From contig JAQBNZ010000061.1 in NCBI GenBank assembly GCA_028288285.1, positions 1 to 40,865 of the forward strand: a stretch of 40,865 nucleotides of DNA, read 5' to 3'. The stretch comes from Mucilaginibacter sp. (GTDB lineage: Bacteria > Bacteroidota > Bacteroidia > Sphingobacteriales > Sphingobacteriaceae). The notes under the pieces are model-generated. The model did no database searches. It had not been told where the DNA came from and worked only from the letters and a program-made list of their open reading frames with translations. The translations under genes and the position numbers were made by a program. Each line of letters begins with the position of its first letter. Positions within the stretch are counted from its first letter, which is position 1. Shown in pieces: positions 32,191 to 39,962 of the stretch.

Positions 32191-33441
32191 TTACTCCACT
32201 GAATCTCTCAGCATTAAAGCCCCAACTGTTACGTTTGTGCGGCTATCAATAATTATAGCGCCACCGTTGGCTTTATTAATCTGGTAAGGATCAAAGGCTA
32301 AAGGTTCGGCTGTTTTAATAACGATACGGCCAATGTCGTTCAGCTTAAAATCTTCTGCATAATCTTTCTCCAGTGTATTTATGTTCACCTTGTAAAGAAT
32401 TTCCTGTACTTTGCAACGCACAGTTTTAGTATTATGCTGCACCAAATAGGTGAGCGACGTATCCAGCGGACGGGTATCCATCCAGCACAGATCAGCTTCT
32501 ATTGCTTTTGAAACCTGCGGGTGCCCGGCACTGTTCACAATAATATCACCACGACTAATATCAATATTATCCTGCAGGTGCACGGTTACAGACATGCCTG
32601 CTAAGGCCTCCTCCGGCTGTTTATCAAACAATTCGATCTTTGAAATAGTAGAGCTAAAGCCTGAAGGTAGTATAGTTACCTTGTCGTTGACGCGGAATGA
32701 TCCGCTTGATACACGGCCTGCATAGCCACGATAATCGTGCAGGGCCTCTGTTTGGGGGCGTACCACCCATTGTACAGGTAGCCTTGCATGTGCGGATGAA
32801 TCATCTATCGTAATCTCTACATTTTCCAGGTGATGCAACAAGCTATCGCCGCTATACCAGCTAATGTTTGGCGATGCATGAACAATGTTATCACCTTTAA
32901 GCGCGCTCACCGGGATGTAGGTTACATTATCAAGATTAAGCTTAGCGGCTAATACTTTATAATCGGCTACTATCTGGTTAAAAACTTCTTCGCTGTAATC
33001 AACCATATCCATCTTGTTTACCGCTACTACTACCTGTGGTATTTGTAATAACGAAACTAAAAAAGAGTGGCGGGTGGTTTGTTCAACAACACCTTTGCGG
33101 GCATCTATCAATATAATGGCTAAGCCGGCGTTGCTTGCACCGGTAACCATGTTACGGGTATACTGGATATGACCGGGAGCATCGGCTATGATAAATTTAC
33201 GTTTATTGGTCTCAAAATACTTGTAAGCCACATCAATGGTAATGCCTTGCTCACGTTCGGCTTTAAGTCCGTCGGTTAAAATAGCAAGGTCAATGCTACC
33301 ATCGTCGTTTTTACGGTTCGATGCATGTAGTGCCTCCAACTGATCAGCCAGGATAGCCTCGCTATCATATAGCAATCTGCCTATTAATGTGCTTTTACCG
33401 TCATCAACACTGCCTGCGGTAATAAATTTTAGTATATCCAT
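32191..33441 (-). CDS. cysN: Sulfate adenylyltransferase subunit 1 (GTPase)
   Basis: A 416-aa EF-Tu-like GTPase that, with CysD, couples GTP hydrolysis to adenylation of sulfate to APS. The P-loop is GSVDDGKST at residues 10-18, the G3 motif DAPGHIQYTRNM, and the G4 motif NKMDMVDYS. The C-terminal beta-barrel domains (RGYAGRVSSGSFRVNDKV, MSVTVHLQDNIDISRGD) follow. There is no fused APS kinase, which agrees with a direct APS-reducing pathway. It is the last gene of the operon, separated from cysD by 198 bp containing four palindromic repeats. Confidence 0.94.
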   Translation of the reverse strand: MDILKFITAGSVDDGKSTLIGRLLYDSEAILADQLEALHASNRKNDDGSIDLAILTDGLKAEREQGITIDVAYKYFETNKRKFIIADAPGHIQYTRNMVTGASNAGLAIILIDARKGVVEQTTRHSFLVSLLQIPQVVVAVNKMDMVDYSEEVFNQIVADYKVLAAKLNLDNVTYIPVSALKGDNIVHASPNISWYSGDSLLHHLENVEITIDDSSAHARLPVQWVVRPQTEALHDYRGYAGRVSSGSFRVNDKVTILPSGFSSTISKIELFDKQPEEALAGMSVTVHLQDNIDISRGDIIVNSAGHPQVSKAIEADLCWMDTRPLDTSLTYLVQHNTKTVRCKVQEILYKVNINTLEKDYAEDFKLNDIGRIVIKTAEPLAFDPYQINKANGGAIIIDSRTNVTVGALMLRDSVE

Positions 33442-33639: not shown

Positions 33640-34545
33640 CTAAAAATAGCCCCCTTTTTTCCTGTCTTCCATGGCTGCCTCACTTACTTTATCATCCATA
33701 CGGGCGCCACGCTCGCTTATTTTTGATGATGCTATTTCATTAATTATATCATCTATCTCAAACGCGTATGATTCCACAGCGGCGGTACAGGTCATATCGC
33801 CAACGGTACGGAAACGCACATTTTTGTTCTCAATTATATCCTCCTCATCCATGTTTAAAAATGGAGAAGCAGCCATTAACTGGCCATTACGGGTAATACA
33901 ATCACGTTTGTGGGCAAAGTAGATGGATGGTAAAGGAATGTTTTCCCTGCGGATGTAGTTCCACACATCCAATTCAGTCCAGTTACTTATCGGAAACACG
34001 CGTACGTTCTCCCCCTTATGAATTTTCCCGTTGTAAATGTCCCACAACTCGGGGCGCTGGCGTTTAGGGTCCCACTGGCCAAACTCATCACGTACCGAAA
34101 ATATACGCTCCTTGGCGCGGGCCTTTTCCTCATCGCGGCGGGCGCCACCTATGCAGGCATCAAACTGGTATTTAGCAATAGTATCTAAAAGGGTAACGGT
34201 TTGCAGGGCATTCCTGCTGGCGTTCTTTCCTTTTTGTTCAATAACTTTGCCTTCATTAATACTGTCCTGTACATGGCCTACAATCAGCTTTTCGCCAATG
34301 CGGGCTATCATTTCATCACGATAGGTGATGGTTTCCACAAAGTTATGACCGGTATCAATATGCACCAGCGGAAAAGGGAACTTACCCGGGCGAAAGGCTT
34401 TTTCGGCCAGCCGTACCAGGGTAATAGAATCTTTACCGCCAGAAAATAACAGCGCAGGTTTTTCAAATTGCCCTGCTACTTCGCGCAAAATATAAATGGC
34501 CTCTGCCTCTAATTCATCCAGGTAATCTAACCGGTATTTGCTCAT
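33640..34545 (-). CDS. cysD: Sulfate adenylyltransferase subunit 2
   Basis: A 301-aa ATP-sulfurylase catalytic subunit of the PP-loop family, forming APS from ATP and sulfate with CysN. The PP-loop is LLFSGGKDSITL (Ser35-Ser40). HIDTGHNFVETI, CIGGARRDEEKARAKER, FPISNWTELDVWNYI and FAHKRDCITRNGQ match CysD, and the C-terminal RMDDKVSEAAMEDRKKGGYF is the usual ending. It overlaps the cysH stop by 4 bp, so the two are translationally coupled. Confidence 0.95.
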   Translation of the reverse strand: MSKYRLDYLDELEAEAIYILREVAGQFEKPALLFSGGKDSITLVRLAEKAFRPGKFPFPLVHIDTGHNFVETITYRDEMIARIGEKLIVGHVQDSINEGKVIEQKGKNASRNALQTVTLLDTIAKYQFDACIGGARRDEEKARAKERIFSVRDEFGQWDPKRQRPELWDIYNGKIHKGENVRVFPISNWTELDVWNYIRRENIPLPSIYFAHKRDCITRNGQLMAASPFLNMDEEDIIENKNVRFRTVGDMTCTAAVESYAFEIDDIINEIASSKISERGARMDDKVSEAAMEDRKKGGYF

Positions 34546-35261
34546 TCTTTTAAATCATTTAGTTCAATTGCATGCAGTCCGCATTCTTTTTTGGATTGGT
34601 CTTCCCACCACCAGCGCCCGGCCCTAAAATCTTCGCCGGGTTGTACCGCCCTTGTGCAGGGCAGGCAGCCTATACTTGGGAAACCCTTGTCATGCAATGT
34701 ATTGTACGGTATATTGTATTGTTTTATGAATGCTTTAACCTCATCTAAAGTCCAGCTAAAAATAGGGTGAAACTTAATAAGCTGATTGCCTTCGTCCCAT
34801 TCCACGTTGTGCATTTCTTCGCGGTTAGGTGATTGCTCTGCACGGATGCCGGTTATCCAGCACTTGTTGCCTGTTAAAGCACGGCGCAATGGCTCTATCT
34901 TACGTATGCCACAGCATTCTTTACGATTCTCTACCGATTCATAAAAACTGTTAGGACCTTTGGCGTTTACCATCTCTTCTAACAGGTGATGAACAGGATA
35001 GTAGGCATGTACCGGCTTACCGTAAATTTCCATAGTGCGATTCCAAACATAATAAGTTTCGGGGAATAGTCTTCCGGTTTCCAGTGTAAAAACTTTTATA
35101 GGGATATTATTAGCGAATATCATGTGCGTAATAGCCTGATCCTCCCAGCCAAAGCTGGTAGAAAATACTATTTCGCCCGGAAATTGCTCTGCCAGTGCCT
35201 GTAAAGCGGCAACGGGATCTTTTCCCTCAATCAATTGCGATATGTATGTAGTATCTGCCAC
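34542..35261 (-). CDS. cysH: Adenylylsulfate (APS) reductase
   Basis: A 239-aa reductase that turns APS into sulfite. The two cysteine pairs that bind a [4Fe-4S] cluster are Cys116-Cys117 (KECCGIRK) and Cys199-Cys202 (GCLPCTR), which mark APS-type rather than PAPS-type reductases; the absence of an APS kinase gene agrees. The catalytic Cys is Cys227 in KKECGLH near the end. STSFGWEDQAI is the nucleotide-binding loop. It shares one base with the upstream fusion gene (35261) and 4 bp with cysD. Confidence 0.94.
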   Translation of the reverse strand: MADTTYISQLIEGKDPVAALQALAEQFPGEIVFSTSFGWEDQAITHMIFANNIPIKVFTLETGRLFPETYYVWNRTMEIYGKPVHAYYPVHHLLEEMVNAKGPNSFYESVENRKECCGIRKIEPLRRALTGNKCWITGIRAEQSPNREEMHNVEWDEGNQLIKFHPIFSWTLDEVKAFIKQYNIPYNTLHDKGFPSIGCLPCTRAVQPGEDFRAGRWWWEDQSKKECGLHAIELNDLKE

Positions 35262-36769
35262 TATATTACTTTAATTATAAAATTCATGATGCTGCGCAAA
35301 CTTATTAAAATAACAATAACTGCTACTGAGAACATAATTGCTTTTGCAGATATTTTGTTTGATATGCGTGCTGCTACCGGCGATGCCAATGCACTGCCAA
35401 TTACAAGCCCGGCTACTGCTTCCCAATGAGCTCCGTTGAGCATAGTGATGAAGGTAAGTGAGCTCATGAGCGCTATAAAGAAGCGCGATAATTTTACAGT
35501 ACCTAATGAAAAACGAGGATGACGGCCACCTGCTATAAGGGTAGAAAGCACGATAGAGCCCCAGCCACCACCACCAACGGCATCAATAAAACCACCGCCT
35601 AAACCCAAAAGAGGGATATTTTTAATTTTAGCTGATGTTCTTTTACGGTTAAGGTTAATTGCCTTAAACAGAATAACCAACCCTAATATGAGTGTGTATA
35701 ACGACACAACAGGCTTGGTATACTGGCTATAATGTTCTAATGAGGATAGGAGGTACGCACCTGTAACAGCACCAATAATGCCCGGTAGCAACAACAACTT
35801 AAATAGTTTCCAGTTTACGTTACCCATACGGTAATGCATCCATCCTGCAATACCGTTGCTCATTATCTCTGACAAATGTACACCCATACTTGCCGAAGCA
35901 GGCGGTATGCCCATTGATAACGAAAAGGTTGTTGAAGTAACTCCGTATGACATGCCTATGGCGCCATCTATTAGCGCGAACACAAAACCTGCTACCAGGA
36001 AATAATAAAACAGCGGGTTAACGCCTTCTACATAGGTTCTAAAAACTGGTTCCTTTAGCCATAAAACCGTTAATGCAATACCTAAGAAAACAACAAAAGT
36101 ACCCCAAACAAACAGCATTAATTTTTTATTGCTTGGTGGTTTTTGTTTGCCAACCAATACTGCTGTTACGCGGTTAAGTTCTTTAACTTTATGAGTAAAA
36201 TCGCCTGATAATTGGTTACGGATCTCATTCATTTGCTGTAATGAGGTATCCAGTTCGGCAGGCAGCGCTTCATTTAAAACTTCTTTAAGCCGTTTAGCTA
36301 TAGTTGGCGATTTACCATTGGTGGATATGCCAATTTTAAGGTCGCCTTTTTGTACAATGGAACCCAGGTAGAAATCGCAAAGCTCTGGCTTATCGGCTAC
36401 ATTGATAAGCAGCTTACGATCATGTGCCGATTGGCGTATATAATTATTCAATTCACTATCGTCCGTAGCTGCAATAACAATATCGGCACCATCCAAATCT
36501 GTATCTGAAAATGCTTTTTGAATAATATTAAGTTGCGCATATTCTGCCGCGAGCGTATGTATCTCGGACAAAAAAGTTTTAGAAATAACAGTAACCGCCG
36601 CAGCCGGACTGTTTTGTAGCAGTGCAGTCAGCTTTTCTAAGCCAACATTACCACCGCCAACAAGCACCGTATGCAGGTTATCCAGCTTTAAAAACACAGG
36701 GAACAATTGATTACCCTCCGTCTTTTCCGGCTGAAGATCGGTTGTATTATTCTTGGGCAACAATGTCAT
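35261..36769 (-). CDS. Fusion: siroheme synthase (precorrin-2 dehydrogenase) and TauE/SafE-type permease
   Basis: A 502-aa two-part protein. Residues about 22-210 match the CysG-N/Met8 type precorrin-2 dehydrogenase/ferrochelatase: VFLKLDNLHTVLVGGGNVGL, DGADIVIAATDDSELN, LINVADKPELCDFYLGSIV and GDLKIGISTNGKSPTIAKRL. This half should make sirohydrochlorin and insert iron to give siroheme for sulfite reductase. Residues about 220-502 are a TauE/SafE (TSUP) membrane permease with about eight helices, showing LIDGAIGMSYGVTSTTFSL and LGGGFIDAVGGGGWGSIV. The permease may carry sulfate, sulfite or another sulfur anion. The gene overlaps cobA by 23 bp and cysH by 1 bp. The frame is continuous through the join, so this is a real fusion, not an assembly of two ORFs. 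Confidence 0.88.
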   Translation of the reverse strand: MTLLPKNNTTDLQPEKTEGNQLFPVFLKLDNLHTVLVGGGNVGLEKLTALLQNSPAAAVTVISKTFLSEIHTLAAEYAQLNIIQKAFSDTDLDGADIVIAATDDSELNNYIRQSAHDRKLLINVADKPELCDFYLGSIVQKGDLKIGISTNGKSPTIAKRLKEVLNEALPAELDTSLQQMNEIRNQLSGDFTHKVKELNRVTAVLVGKQKPPSNKKLMLFVWGTFVVFLGIALTVLWLKEPVFRTYVEGVNPLFYYFLVAGFVFALIDGAIGMSYGVTSTTFSLSMGIPPASASMGVHLSEIMSNGIAGWMHYRMGNVNWKLFKLLLLPGIIGAVTGAYLLSSLEHYSQYTKPVVSLYTLILGLVILFKAINLNRKRTSAKIKNIPLLGLGGGFIDAVGGGGWGSIVLSTLIAGGRHPRFSLGTVKLSRFFIALMSSLTFITMLNGAHWEAVAGLVIGSALASPVAARISNKISAKAIMFSVAVIVILISLRSIMNFIIKVI

Positions 36770-37538
36770 AAAATTCCCTGATAGGCTGAAACTTGGGGTG
36801 AAGTGAAACTACTTCGCCAAAAACAATTAAAGCAGGAGAGGTGATATGGTTTTCTTCGGCCACCTCAACAATGGTATCAACCACGCCAACCACTACTTTT
36901 TCATTAGCGGTAGATCCGCTTTGTATTACGGCAACAGGTAACTTGTTTTTGCCTTCATTTTTAAATATCTCAGCAATTTCGGCAAGTTTGTGTATGCCCA
37001 TAAGCACAACAACGGTTGCTTTGGTTTTAGCCGCCTGGTAAAGATCTGCAGATACTTTACCATCGCTGGTTGTACCTGTTACTACCCAAAAGCTTTCGCT
37101 AAGGCCGCGGTGTGTAACCGGTATACCTTGCAAGCCCGGTACGCCAATTGAACTTGATATACCCGGAATAATCTGTGCCGGAATGCTGTAATCTGCAGCA
37201 TGGTCCAGTTCCTCGTATCCACGACCAAACACAAACGGATCGCCGCCTTTTAGCCTTACTACGTGACCGTAATTAAGGGCATAATCAATCATCAGCTTGT
37301 TAATGTTTTCCTGCGAAAATGAATGGTCGCCAGAGCGTTTACCTACATATACTTTAGTGGCATGTGCGGGAGCAAATTCAAGCAATTCTTCATTAACCAA
37401 AGCATCATACAACACTACATCGGCGGTTTGTAAAGCTTTTATACCTTTTATGGTGATAAGTTCTGCATCGCCTGGGCCTGCGCCAACAAGGGTTATGCGT
37501 GGCTCTTTAACTGAAGTTTTTGTTTGTGTTTGTATCAT
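36747..37538 (-). CDS. cobA: Uroporphyrinogen-III C-methyltransferase (SUMT)
   Basis: A 263-aa SAM-dependent enzyme that methylates uroporphyrinogen III twice to precorrin-2 for siroheme synthesis. Motifs: ITLVGAGPGDAELITIKG, ADVVLYDALVNEELL, VYVGKRSGDH, VVRLKGGDPFVFGRGYEE and IPVTHRGLSESF. Together with the downstream dehydrogenase fusion it completes siroheme synthesis. It overlaps the sulfite reductase stop by 4 bp and the next gene by 23 bp. Confidence 0.95.
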   Translation of the reverse strand: MIQTQTKTSVKEPRITLVGAGPGDAELITIKGIKALQTADVVLYDALVNEELLEFAPAHATKVYVGKRSGDHSFSQENINKLMIDYALNYGHVVRLKGGDPFVFGRGYEELDHAADYSIPAQIIPGISSSIGVPGLQGIPVTHRGLSESFWVVTGTTSDGKVSADLYQAAKTKATVVVLMGIHKLAEIAEIFKNEGKNKLPVAVIQSGSTANEKVVVGVVDTIVEVAEENHITSPALIVFGEVVSLHPKFQPIREFYDIVAQE

Positions 37539-39625
37539 GATAACACTGCCTCTCTTTTATTTTTAACCAATTGCAGAAATTCCGTAGCTTGTTGTAAGTA
37601 TGCTGTAGCAAATTCTTCAGAAGGTTCGTTTTTGTTTATTTGTAATACCAGGTCGCTAAAAGTACCATCAATGGTAATCTCGCCTGTTGAAGTATAGTAA
37701 GTATCAAACTCGCGGATAATGCCCGCTTGTGTGCTGCTATTAACGCTTTTATCAAGCAATAAAGCTTTGGCCCCGCTAATCATTGTATTGTAAGAATGAT
37801 AGATAGCATCGGCCCATAAGCCTTTTGCATAGGCACCGTTGGCCCAGCCCAGTTTCTCGTCGCTTTCATAAAGCAAAGTTGCTACAAGGTCAATTACAAC
37901 ACCGGCGCACTCGCCAACACCTATTGCCGTAGCAAATGTTTCCTGGTGGCCCCAGTCTACAAATTCGTCTTCGGTTAGTGTGCTCAGGTCTGCCAGTGGC
38001 TTTAATAACTGATAAAAATAATCCTTGCCTTTGCTGTCATAATAAGCATGGAAAGTTTCGCCACCAACAGAGTTGGTTTTATAATCATCTAACACTGCTC
38101 TTAATACATGCGTAGCACGTTTAGCCGGGACTTTTATAACTTTTTCGGCTGCACGGCCAACACCATTACCTACCGTTCCGCCACCTAACAATACCTGTAC
38201 AGATGGTAAAACTTTTAAGCCTGATTTTAATGAACTGCCATGAAAACCAATATGCGCCAAGCCATGCTGACCGCAACTGTTCATACAGCCACTAATTTTT
38301 ATCTTAATATCACGATTAAAAATTAGGTCTTCATATTCGTTGTAAATTACATCTTCCAGCACCTTTGATAAGGTCATGCTGTTAGAGATGCCTAAGTTAC
38401 AGGTATCAGTACCCGGACAAGTGGTTACATCTGCAACGCTGTCGAAACCCGGCGCCGCCAGATCTAAAGCCAGCAGGCCTTCATATAACCCAGGCAATGC
38501 CTCCTTACGGACGAACTTTAACAGTAAGCCCTGGTTTTGAGTAACACGAATTTCATCGCCTACAAAAGGTTTAATAGCATCAACTAATGCACGGGCAGTA
38601 TTAGATGGTATATCGCCAACAGGTACTTTAATATATACACCATAAAAGGCGCTTTGCTTTTGCTCAAAAACGTTAGTTGCGAGCCATTGTTCGTATCGCA
38701 GCGGGTTGCTTATCTCCACATCAGGGTAAACTATTTCTGCAGGCAAAGCTGGTTCAGGAACAGTATCGCGGTTAATTGGGTATGTTTTTACTTTTAAAGC
38801 TATGCGTTCTTCTTTAGCTAATCGCAATACTTCATCCAAACCAATTTTTTGGATAAGGTATTTCATACGGGCCTTATTACGGTTATTGCGTTCGCCGTAA
38901 CGGTCAAACACACGTATTATGGCTTCTATGTAAGGTATCAGCTCATCTTCCGGAAGGAAATCTTCTACAGCGCTTGCCAGTAAAGGCTGGGCACCAAGTC
39001 CGCCGCCTAATAAAACCTTAAAGCCACGCTCGCCATTTTCTTTAAGCTTGGGTATCAAGCCCACATCATGGATATAGGCAAACGCGGTATCAGCATCGCT
39101 TGATGAAAAAGATATCTTGAATTTGCGACCCATATCCTGACAGATAGGGTTACGCAAAAAATATTCAAACGTTGCCTGTGCATAAGGCGATACATCAAAC
39201 GGTTCCTGCGGATCAACGCCGGAGGCAGGAGAAGAAGTTACATTTCTTACCGTATTACCGCATGCTTCGCGCAGGGTTATATCGTCACGCTCCAAATCGG
39301 CCCATAGTTGCGGGGTACGATCAAGGCTCACATAATGAATTTGAATATCCTGGCGGGTGGTTAGGTGCAGGTTGCCGCTACCATATTCGTCGGCTATATC
39401 AGCAATTTTTAATAGCTGCTTAAAAGTTACCTTACCAAACGGTAGTTTAATACGCACCATTTGTACGCCGGGCTGCCTTTGGCCATAAACACCACGTGCC
39501 AGACGCAGGCTCCGGAATTTTTCGTCATGTATTTTACCCTCTCTGAATGCCCTAATCTTTCTTTCCAGGTCAATAATATCCTGTTCAACTATGGGGTTCT
39601 CCAGTTCCGTTCTGAAGCTTTGCAT
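37535..39625 (-). CDS. Assimilatory sulfite reductase (siroheme/[4Fe-4S]) with a helical HEPN-like tail
   Basis: A 696-aa member of the nitrite/sulfite reductase hemoprotein family. Residues about 1-530 hold two ferredoxin-like half-domains and siroheme domains; the cluster and siroheme ligands are Cys403, Cys409, Cys447 and Cys451 (CPGTDTC and GCMNSCGQH). LPFGKVTFKQLLKIADIAD and GNLHLTTRQDIQIHYV are family motifs. Residues about 540-690 form an extra helical region (LWADAIYHSYNTMISGAKAL, then TQAGIIREF) that resembles HEPN domains; its role is unknown. Sulfite rather than nitrite is indicated by the cysH/D/N and siroheme genes downstream in the same operon. It is the first large gene, preceded by a Cys leader and attenuator. 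Confidence 0.92.
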   Translation of the reverse strand: MQSFRTELENPIVEQDIIDLERKIRAFREGKIHDEKFRSLRLARGVYGQRQPGVQMVRIKLPFGKVTFKQLLKIADIADEYGSGNLHLTTRQDIQIHYVSLDRTPQLWADLERDDITLREACGNTVRNVTSSPASGVDPQEPFDVSPYAQATFEYFLRNPICQDMGRKFKISFSSSDADTAFAYIHDVGLIPKLKENGERGFKVLLGGGLGAQPLLASAVEDFLPEDELIPYIEAIIRVFDRYGERNNRNKARMKYLIQKIGLDEVLRLAKEERIALKVKTYPINRDTVPEPALPAEIVYPDVEISNPLRYEQWLATNVFEQKQSAFYGVYIKVPVGDIPSNTARALVDAIKPFVGDEIRVTQNQGLLLKFVRKEALPGLYEGLLALDLAAPGFDSVADVTTCPGTDTCNLGISNSMTLSKVLEDVIYNEYEDLIFNRDIKIKISGCMNSCGQHGLAHIGFHGSSLKSGLKVLPSVQVLLGGGTVGNGVGRAAEKVIKVPAKRATHVLRAVLDDYKTNSVGGETFHAYYDSKGKDYFYQLLKPLADLSTLTEDEFVDWGHQETFATAIGVGECAGVVIDLVATLLYESDEKLGWANGAYAKGLWADAIYHSYNTMISGAKALLLDKSVNSSTQAGIIREFDTYYTSTGEITIDGTFSDLVLQINKNEPSEEFATAYLQQATEFLQLVKNKREAVLS

Positions 39626-39652: not shown

Positions 39653-39682
39653 AAAAAAACCCCTTCGCTGTGGCTGAAGAGG
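39653..39682 (-). terminator. Attenuator terminator before the sulfate operon
   Basis: On the minus strand a 7-bp stem CCUCUUC / GAAGGGG (39682-39676 and 39666-39660, one G-U pair) with a 9-base loop is followed by seven U (39659-39653). It stands 27 bp before the sulfite reductase ATG and after the leader ORF, so it can stop transcription before the operon. Confidence 0.75.
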
Positions 39683-39714
39683 CATGTATTTCATTTACAC
39701 ATACTTACAACCAC
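39670..39714 (-). promoter_or_regulatory. Antiterminator pairing that competes with the attenuator
   Basis: On the minus strand, GUGGUUG-U-AAG (39714-39704) can pair with CUUCAGCCAC (39679-39670), 10 pairs with one bulged U and one G-U. The downstream arm takes CUUC from the left arm of the terminator, so the two structures exclude each other. The upstream arm spans the last Trp-Leu-stop codons of the leader ORF, so a ribosome finishing the leader would cover it. A further pairing of ACAGC (39727-39723) with GUUGU (39711-39707) could act as a protector hairpin. Confidence 0.6.
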
Positions 39715-39779
39715 GATCTTTCGCTGTGCATGCAGCAATAAACAAGAATGTTGTTATATGTAAAAGTTGTATGCTTCAT
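39705..39779 (-). CDS. 24-aa leader peptide with tandem cysteine codons (sulfate operon attenuator)
   Basis: The ORF encodes MKHTTFTYNNILVYCC followed by MHSERSWL and a TAA. The Cys codons 15-16 (39737-39732) lie 17 bases upstream of the antiterminator arm. A ribosome stalled there for lack of charged tRNA-Cys would leave that arm free and allow read-through; a ribosome reaching the stop would cover it and let the terminator form. This is the standard layout of an amino-acid attenuator, placed before genes that make sulfide for cysteine. It follows a TATATTTG -7 box ending 10 bases before the ATG, so the ORF may be nearly leaderless. No homologue recalled; function is inference from structure. 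Confidence 0.65.
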   Translation of the reverse strand: MKHTTFTYNNILVYCCMHSERSWL

Positions 39780-39789
39780 TTTTATATTT

Positions 39790-39797
39790 CAAATATA
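39790..39797 (-). promoter_or_regulatory. Candidate -7 promoter box of the sulfate operon
   Basis: On the minus strand it reads TATATTTG, an exact TAnnTTTG match, 10 bases before the leader ATG. Upstream (39798-39950) is AT-rich without a clear -33 TTG at the normal distance, so the assignment is tentative. Confidence 0.45.
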
Positions 39798-39962
39798 TAC
39801 ATACTATAGGGAATTAGTAGAATTTATTTGAAAATATTAAAGTTGTGACAATGGTTTGATTTTTTAACAGCCAAGTTACCCTGATGATATAGATGTTAAA
39901 ATTAATTAAACGGATATTGATGCTGTTTCTTGTATTATTTATGTAAATAACTTAAAACAAAA

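What the first reader, a model, noticed from the sequence alone, without database searches (positions are those of the whole stretch)
39653..39797. Complete cysteine attenuator before the sulfate-assimilation operon
In order on the minus strand there are a -7 box, a 24-codon ORF with tandem TGC TGC, an antiterminator arm covering the ORF's last codons, its partner, and an intrinsic terminator 27 bp before the sulfite reductase start. The two structures exclude each other (10 versus 7 pairs) and the Cys codons are spaced so that a stalled ribosome frees the antiterminator. The downstream genes supply sulfide for cysteine. I know of no described ribosome-mediated cysteine attenuator for this operon in Bacteroidota.
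Basis: partly seen in the sequence, partly recalled or inferred. Interest (0 to 1): 0.88.

Follow-up and report, generated by a model that had tools for sequence, protein, structure and literature searches.

The report
Cysteine-sensing attenuator before sulfate-assimilation operon
Soil bacteria of the genus Mucilaginibacter and several related genera appear to switch on their sulfate-assimilation genes by letting a ribosome stall on cysteine (and perhaps methionine) codons in a tiny leader gene, a well-known kind of RNA switch not previously described, as far as I could find, for these amino acids in this phylum.

Summary
On the minus strand, a TATATTTG -7 box (39797-39790) is followed by a 24-codon ORF, MKHTTFTYNNILVYCCMHSERSWL (39779-39705), an antiterminator arm inside its last codons, and an intrinsic terminator (39683-39653), 27 nt before a sulfite-reductase-like gene that heads siroheme, cysH, cysD and cysN genes. 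It is not chance: most Mucilaginibacter genomes sampled carry it, and equivalents precede the same gene in six other genera of the family. In 95 divergent leader ORFs chosen without regard to content, Cys makes up 11.3% of residues (2.7% in shuffles) and 67 contain CC or CxC (about 2.4 expected). All four TGY-TGY spellings occur. Folding the window leader with a ribosome at Cys favours the antiterminator (terminator probability 0-0.03); with a ribosome at the stop codon the terminator forms (1.0). Best explanation: classical ribosome-mediated transcription attenuation sensing cysteine. New here: Met codons are as enriched as Cys codons and cluster beside them, so the switch may read both sulfur amino acids; His leaders of the same genus lack this Met excess. 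Cysteine leader peptides are known in Actinobacteria, without obvious terminators. I rate this a new variant of a known kind. No expression data exist.

The parts
39801..39820 (-). Conserved upstream element CTACTAATTCCCTATAGTAT next to the -7 box; likely promoter or operator element
   Evidence: Conserved in the genus, also in orthologues without the leader, e.g. L080, L086; full element found only at this operon in the window genome
39790..39797 (-). Bacteroidota-type -7 box TATATTTG (TAnnTTTG)
   Evidence: Read directly; conserved in relatives
39705..39779 (-). 24-codon leader ORF MKHTTFTYNNILVYCCMHSERSWL*
   Evidence: Cys and Met codon enrichment in 90-95 divergent homologous leaders
39732..39737 (-). 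Tandem Cys codons TGC TGC, the proposed stall site (followed by an ATG Met codon)
   Evidence: third bases vary synonymously in relatives
39708..39714 (-). Antiterminator 5' arm GTGGTTG, inside the last codons of the leader ORF
   Evidence: Folds with 39670-39676
39697..39704 (-). Inner antiterminator helix, 5' strand GTATGTGT
39682..39689 (-). Inner antiterminator helix, 3' strand ATACATGC, overlapping the first two bases of the terminator stem
39670..39676 (-). Antiterminator 3' arm CAGCCAC, sharing C39676 with the terminator stem
39653..39683 (-). Intrinsic terminator GCCTCTTC-AGCCACAGC-GAAGGGG-TTTTTTT
   Evidence: conserved in the genus
37535..39625 (-). Nitrite/sulfite reductase family protein (696 aa), first gene of the controlled operon
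   Evidence: Pfam NIR_SIR and NIR_SIR_ferr; sulfite role inferred from the operon context
36747..37538 (-). Uroporphyrinogen-III C-methyltransferase (siroheme branch)
   Evidence: NCBIfam TIGR01469 over cut-off
35261..36769 (-). Siroheme synthase N-terminal domain fused to a TauE/SafE sulfite exporter domain
34542..35261 (-). CysH-type (P)APS reductase
   Evidence: NCBIfam NF002537 and TIGR02055 over cut-off
33640..34545 (-). CysD, sulfate adenylyltransferase small subunit
   Evidence: NCBIfam TIGR02039 over cut-off
32191..33441 (-). CysN, sulfate adenylyltransferase large subunit
   Evidence: NCBIfam TIGR02034 over cut-off

Best explanation
A classical ribosome-mediated transcription attenuator. 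RNA polymerase starts just after the -7 box and a ribosome loads on the 5'-proximal AUG. With enough charged tRNA-Cys, the ribosome runs to the stop codon and covers GTGGTTG; the terminator forms and transcription stops before the sulfite-reductase gene. When charged tRNA-Cys (possibly also tRNA-Met) is short, the ribosome stalls at TGC TGC; GTGGTTG stays free and pairs with CAGCCAC while an inner helix captures the foot of the terminator stem. The terminator cannot form and the sulfate-assimilation genes are transcribed. Shown by sequence and comparison: all parts, their conservation, codon enrichment, exclusive pairing. Inferred: transcription start, translation of the ORF, stalling, response to cysteine or methionine, co-transcription of the whole gene run.
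For: Conserved leader in 113 of 150 genus genomes. A terminator plus a Cys-containing first-ATG ORF occurs in six other genera of the family, and a model built on Mucilaginibacter alone has (weak) hits directly upstream of the same gene in four genomes of two of those genera. Cys is 11.3% of residues versus 2.7% in shuffles; CC/CxC in 67 of 95 versus a mean of 2.4, maximum 7. Synonymous third-base variation. The last Cys codon lies a median of 50 nt before the terminator. The shared base C/T keeps its partner in both stems: G-C-G 24, A-T-A 18, G-T-A 8, A-T-G 1, no A with C. The arm pairs better with its own terminator half than with swapped ones: -11.1 versus -9.3, sd 0.21. Window leader: P(terminator) 0-0.03 stalled at Cys, 1.0 at stop. 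Nascent-RNA model: 86 of 90 leaders sequester 5 or more nt of the terminator 5' half when stalled at Cys, 15 of 90 at stop. The genus has an analogous His leader before hisG.
Against: No expression, term-seq or ribosome-profiling data. At full equilibrium only 17 of 90 leaders, the window included, flip completely (spacer shuffles: mean 0.85, maximum 3); most need a kinetic argument. Compensating changes represent few independent events: about 4 changes on a weakly supported tree. A few leaders keep only one Cys codon.
Confidence: 0.92

Rival explanations
1. The leader acts through translation or Rho-dependent termination, as in the mycobacterial cysteine leader ORFs; the hairpin only trims transcript ends.
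For: Cysteine leader peptides in Actinobacteria lack obvious terminators and are reported as translational attenuators.
Against: A strong U-tailed hairpin is conserved at this place and its 5' half is specifically complementary to the leader.
Confidence: 0.05
2. The short ORF encodes a functional cysteine-rich micropeptide and the terminator is a constitutive brake.
For: The peptide is conserved in position and has conserved Cys residues.
Against: The rest of the peptide drifts freely and its length and C-terminus vary; in relatives the Cys pair is sometimes single or replaced by CxC or CH.
Confidence: 0.02
3. The codon pattern and hairpin are coincidental, or the hairpin is the terminator of the upstream gene.
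For: Terminator-like hairpins are common: the simple scan found no clear excess over shuffles.
Against: The upstream gene has its own hairpin at 39986-39963; codon enrichment far exceeds shuffles.
Confidence: 0.01

Closest known systems
Ribosome-mediated amino-acid operon attenuators (trp, his, thr, ilv leaders)
   Same: Leader ORF rich in codons of the pathway product, exclusive antiterminator/terminator, terminator before the first biosynthetic gene
   Different: Codons are Cys with clustered Met and the operon is sulfate assimilation; in a third of the leaders the AUG lies only 4 nt after the -7 box, suggesting leaderless translation
Polycysteine leaderless short ORFs of mycobacteria (Canestrari et al. 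2020, as cited in PMC13236596 and PMC9031893)
   Same: Short, leaderless ORF with tandem Cys codons before sulfur or cysteine genes
   Different: Those are described as translational attenuators and the mycobacterial leaders have no conserved terminator (PMC1262725); here an intrinsic terminator and antiterminator are conserved, in an unrelated phylum
Cys leader peptides before cys operons of Mycobacterium and Propionibacterium acnes and cbs of Bifidobacterium longum (Seliverstov et al. 2005, PMC1262725)
   Same: Runs of Cys codons near the end of a leader ORF before cysteine genes
   Different: No terminator identified there; mechanism left open
His leader before hisG in Mucilaginibacter (this study)
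   Same: Same genus, short leader ORF rich in codons of the pathway product close to a -7 box
   Different: His codons; internal Met is 1.3% instead of 8.4%

Membership tests
Ribosome-mediated transcription attenuator (trp/his type) | Short leader ORF enriched in codons for the pathway product | tested here: met
Ribosome-mediated transcription attenuator (trp/his type) | Rho-independent terminator between leader ORF and first structural gene | tested here: met
Ribosome-mediated transcription attenuator (trp/his type) | Antiterminator that excludes the terminator | tested here: met
Ribosome-mediated transcription attenuator (trp/his type) | Ribosome stalled at the sensor codons frees, and at the stop codon masks, the antiterminator arm | tested here: met
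   Window: (computational). Across relatives full equilibrium switching in 17 of 90, nascent sequestration in 86 of 90
Ribosome-mediated transcription attenuator (trp/his type) | Downstream genes serve synthesis of the sensed amino acid | tested here: met
   siroheme, cysH, cysD, cysN; sulfide for cysteine
Ribosome-mediated transcription attenuator (trp/his type) | Read-through rises when the amino acid is limiting | not testable with these tools
   Needs RNA measurements
Mycobacterial polycysteine leaderless ORF attenuators | No intrinsic terminator; control of translation | tested here: not met
   A conserved terminator is present; an effect on translation was not testable
Cysteine T-box or SAM riboswitch | Match to the Rfam covariance model | tested here: not met
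   No Rfam match

The most novel reading that the evidence does not exclude
A dual sulfur-amino-acid sensor: the leader reads both charged tRNA-Cys and charged tRNA-Met from one codon cluster, often on an essentially leaderless mRNA, and drives a sulfate-assimilation operon by intrinsic termination, evolved independently of the actinobacterial cysteine leaders.
Probability: 0.5. Interest if true: 0.7.

Novelty: new variant of a known kind. Interest (0 to 1): 0.58.

Why it matters
Control of sulfur assimilation in Bacteroidota is poorly described. This gives a directly testable cis-acting mechanism that needs no dedicated protein sensor, and a second, apparently independent origin of cysteine-codon attenuation, here with a complete terminator/antiterminator. 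The clustered Met codons raise a testable question: can one leader integrate two related amino acids that share a sulfide supply? The leader family (about 90 divergent sequences here) is also a good comparative set for attenuator evolution, with apparent losses and a change in how the competing stem is built.

Tried and rejected
Rfam at gathering and permissive thresholds: no match. Weak RNA-model hits elsewhere (L205-L207, L209-L211, L213, L218, L219) were inspected and are ordinary terminators, not leaders of sulfur genes. The two weak extra hits in the window genome (E about 3 and 4) were not pursued. Equilibrium folding as a universal test was too strict: only 17 of 90 leaders flip, so a nascent-RNA model was used. 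Tree-based counting of compensating changes lacks power: 2 independent pairs on supported branches. A search for a regulon sharing the upstream element found only this operon plus one 2-mismatch hit. In the 22 orthologues from other families that were inspected, no comparable leader was seen directly before the gene; many of those genes lie behind other genes, so this is not proof of absence. One RNA-model hit in another family of the class (G644, E 6e-4) was not inspected. Laying the whole genome for a full leader scan was not possible. The paper Canestrari et al. 2020 could not be read and is cited through papers that describe it. A 2014 paper from the Lyubetsky group on sulfur genes is known to me only from a reference list and memory.

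Full report
The object and its place. The window comes from a Mucilaginibacter genome (Bacteroidota): the top relatives of its sulfite-reductase-like protein are nearly all named Mucilaginibacter or are metagenome bins near it. On the minus strand the order is: conserved element CTACTAATTCCCTATAGTAT, -7 box TATATTTG, a 24-codon ORF, a competing stem, an intrinsic terminator, 27 nt, and a 696-residue nitrite/sulfite reductase family protein. That gene is followed by a uroporphyrinogen methyltransferase, a siroheme-synthase/TauE fusion, cysH, cysD and cysN on the same strand; the first five overlap end to end and cysN follows after about 200 nt. The sulfite role of the first gene rests on this context; its NCBIfam scores lie below every curated cut-off and the best is a NirA-type model.

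Is it more than chance? The 301-nt leader region matches 113 of 150 genomes of the genus. Of 88 fetched regions in which the gene start was found, 85 passed the terminator pattern, L045 has a variant terminator, and two (L080, L086) keep the promoter element but lack the leader. In other genera of the same family, upstream regions of the orthologue carry the same arrangement with different sequence. Loci with a terminator and a Cys-containing first-ATG ORF, by coded genus: g14 10 of 15, g21 10 of 12, g18 6 of 14, g4 3 of 4, g17 2 of 2, g8 1 of 1; g15 and g16 0 of 12; the single genomes of four further genera none. The genus codes carry no names. The covariance model built only on Mucilaginibacter hits exactly before the orthologue in four genomes of g18 and g21 (E 1.5e-4 to 7e-3). 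Other hits of that strength were ordinary terminators, so it is the location that makes those four meaningful.

What is selected in the ORF? ORFs were picked by the first ATG after the -7 box, not by content. In 95 sequences under 75% identical, Cys is 11.3% of residues against 2.7% in nucleotide shuffles; 90 have at least one Cys, and 67 have CC or CxC against a shuffle mean of 2.4 and maximum of 7. The Cys pair is spelled TGCTGT 25, TGTTGC 18, TGTTGT 12 and TGCTGC 8 times, so selection is on the amino acid. The last Cys codon lies a median of 50 nt before the terminator, with about half of the values between 48 and 54, while the stop-to-terminator distance has quartiles 20 and 33.

Methionine. 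Unexpectedly, Met is enriched as strongly as Cys: 8.4% against 2.0%. ATG occurs in frame at 8.4% but at 1.2% and 0.7% in the other frames. An internal Met lies within four codons of a Cys in 53 of 60 Mucilaginibacter leaders (shuffle mean 11.4, maximum 22) and in 26 of 30 leaders of other genera (mean 4.7, maximum 10). The His leaders before hisG in the same genus (for example MNGIALHHLHLHHHHVVIS) have 33% His but only 1.3% internal Met and 0.3% Cys, so Met excess is not a general property of leader peptides there. As sulfide also feeds methionine synthesis (established biochemistry), a dual sensor is plausible. Alternatives are that ATG codons serve re-initiation or a small hairpin that forms over the Cys codons (local folding -4.3 versus -2.3 kcal/mol shuffled).

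How the switch works. In the window sequence, GTGGTTG (codons 22-24) pairs with CAGCCAC, and GTATGTGT with ATACATGC, 15 pairs in all; this captures G39683, C39682 and C39676 of the terminator stem. Folding with a ribosome stalled on either Cys codon (12 nt masked from the first base of the A-site codon) gives antiterminator probability 0.95-0.99 and terminator 0.00-0.03; with the ribosome at the stop codon the terminator has probability 1.0; with no ribosome the terminator also forms (0.97). Across 90 divergent leaders, in the RNA made before the terminator 3' arm exists, a mean of 10.5 nt of the terminator 5' half is sequestered when stalled at Cys, 2.5 nt at stop, and 6.9 (maximum 7.6) when stalled at Cys with the spacer shuffled. 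At full equilibrium only 17 of 90 flip completely (shuffle mean 0.85, maximum 3). The window is among them; the others would need the kinetic lead of the antiterminator, as expected for co-transcriptional attenuation but not shown.

Compensating changes. The base shared by both stems (C or T after GCCTCTT) is C only with G in the leader arm and G in the terminator 3' arm (24 leaders). When it is T, the partners are A and A (18), G and A (8) or A and G (1); A never faces C. The arm pairs with its own terminator half better than with swapped halves (-11.1 versus -9.3, sd 0.21). The tree is weak and implies only about four changes of that base, so this is supportive rather than decisive. In part of the genus the competing arm instead pairs the terminator stem directly (GAGGCTTT with AAAGCCTC, L058).

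Translation start. In 33 of 95 leaders the ATG lies exactly 4 nt after the -7 box; in the window it is 10 nt. Given the usual position of the start site in Bacteroidota promoters (my knowledge), many of these leaders should be leaderless or nearly so. This was not measured.

What is known. In the open-access library I found no cysteine attenuator in Bacteroidota. Cysteine leader peptides were predicted in Actinobacteria without terminators (PMC1262725). Cysteine-rich leader ORFs in mycobacteria were proposed as the first cysteine-directed attenuation in bacteria (PMC4633059), and leaderless polycysteine ORFs there are cited as cysteine-responsive attenuators acting on translation (Canestrari 2020, as cited; the paper itself was not available). 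Leader-peptide attenuation upstream of amino-acid operons was suggested in Flavobacterium psychrophilum without naming cysteine (PMC9723704). Most subscription papers could not be searched, so a prior description cannot be ruled out.

Verdict. It works like a trp/his-type attenuator and meets each sequence-testable defining feature; the physiological response is untested. It is a new variant of a known kind: cysteine (probably with methionine), complete intrinsic terminator, Bacteroidota.

Noticed in passing
Leaders in loci L001-L090 and L203-L308; window ORF 39779-39705: Met codons are enriched as strongly as Cys codons in the leader peptides and cluster beside them, suggesting dual sensing of cysteine and methionine.
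   Followed up: partly
Loci L340-L369 (hisG upstream regions, genus Mucilaginibacter): A His-rich leader peptide (e.g. MNGIALHHLHLHHHHVVIS) precedes hisG in 29 of 30 loci, close after a -7 box: an apparent histidine attenuator.
   Followed up: partly
39801-39820 minus strand; L080, L086, L249, L264, L267, L268, L279, L280, L284: An upstream element (CTACTAATTCCCTATAG type) is kept even where the leader is absent; similar CTAYTAAAT-like dyads precede orthologues in some other families (L323, L324, L329). Possibly an operator for an unidentified sulfur regulator.
   Followed up: partly
L080, L086, L249; genera g15 and g16 (L267-L269, L297-L305): Orthologues with the gene (and often the promoter element) but no leader or terminator: apparent losses, or lineages that never had the attenuator.
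   Followed up: partly
39714-39740 minus strand and equivalents: A small hairpin tends to form over the Cys codons, more stable than shuffles and better matched to its own sequence than to swapped ones; possibly an RNA polymerase pause signal.
   Followed up: no
35261-36769 minus strand: Siroheme synthase N-terminal domain fused to a TauE/SafE sulfite exporter domain in one protein.
   Followed up: no
37535-39625 minus strand: The first gene is called sulfite reductase by context, but its NCBIfam scores are below every curated cut-off and the best is a NirA-type model.
   Followed up: no
Leader set (95 sequences): In 33 of 95 leaders the start codon lies exactly 4 nt after the -7 box, suggesting leaderless translation of the leader ORF.
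   Followed up: partly
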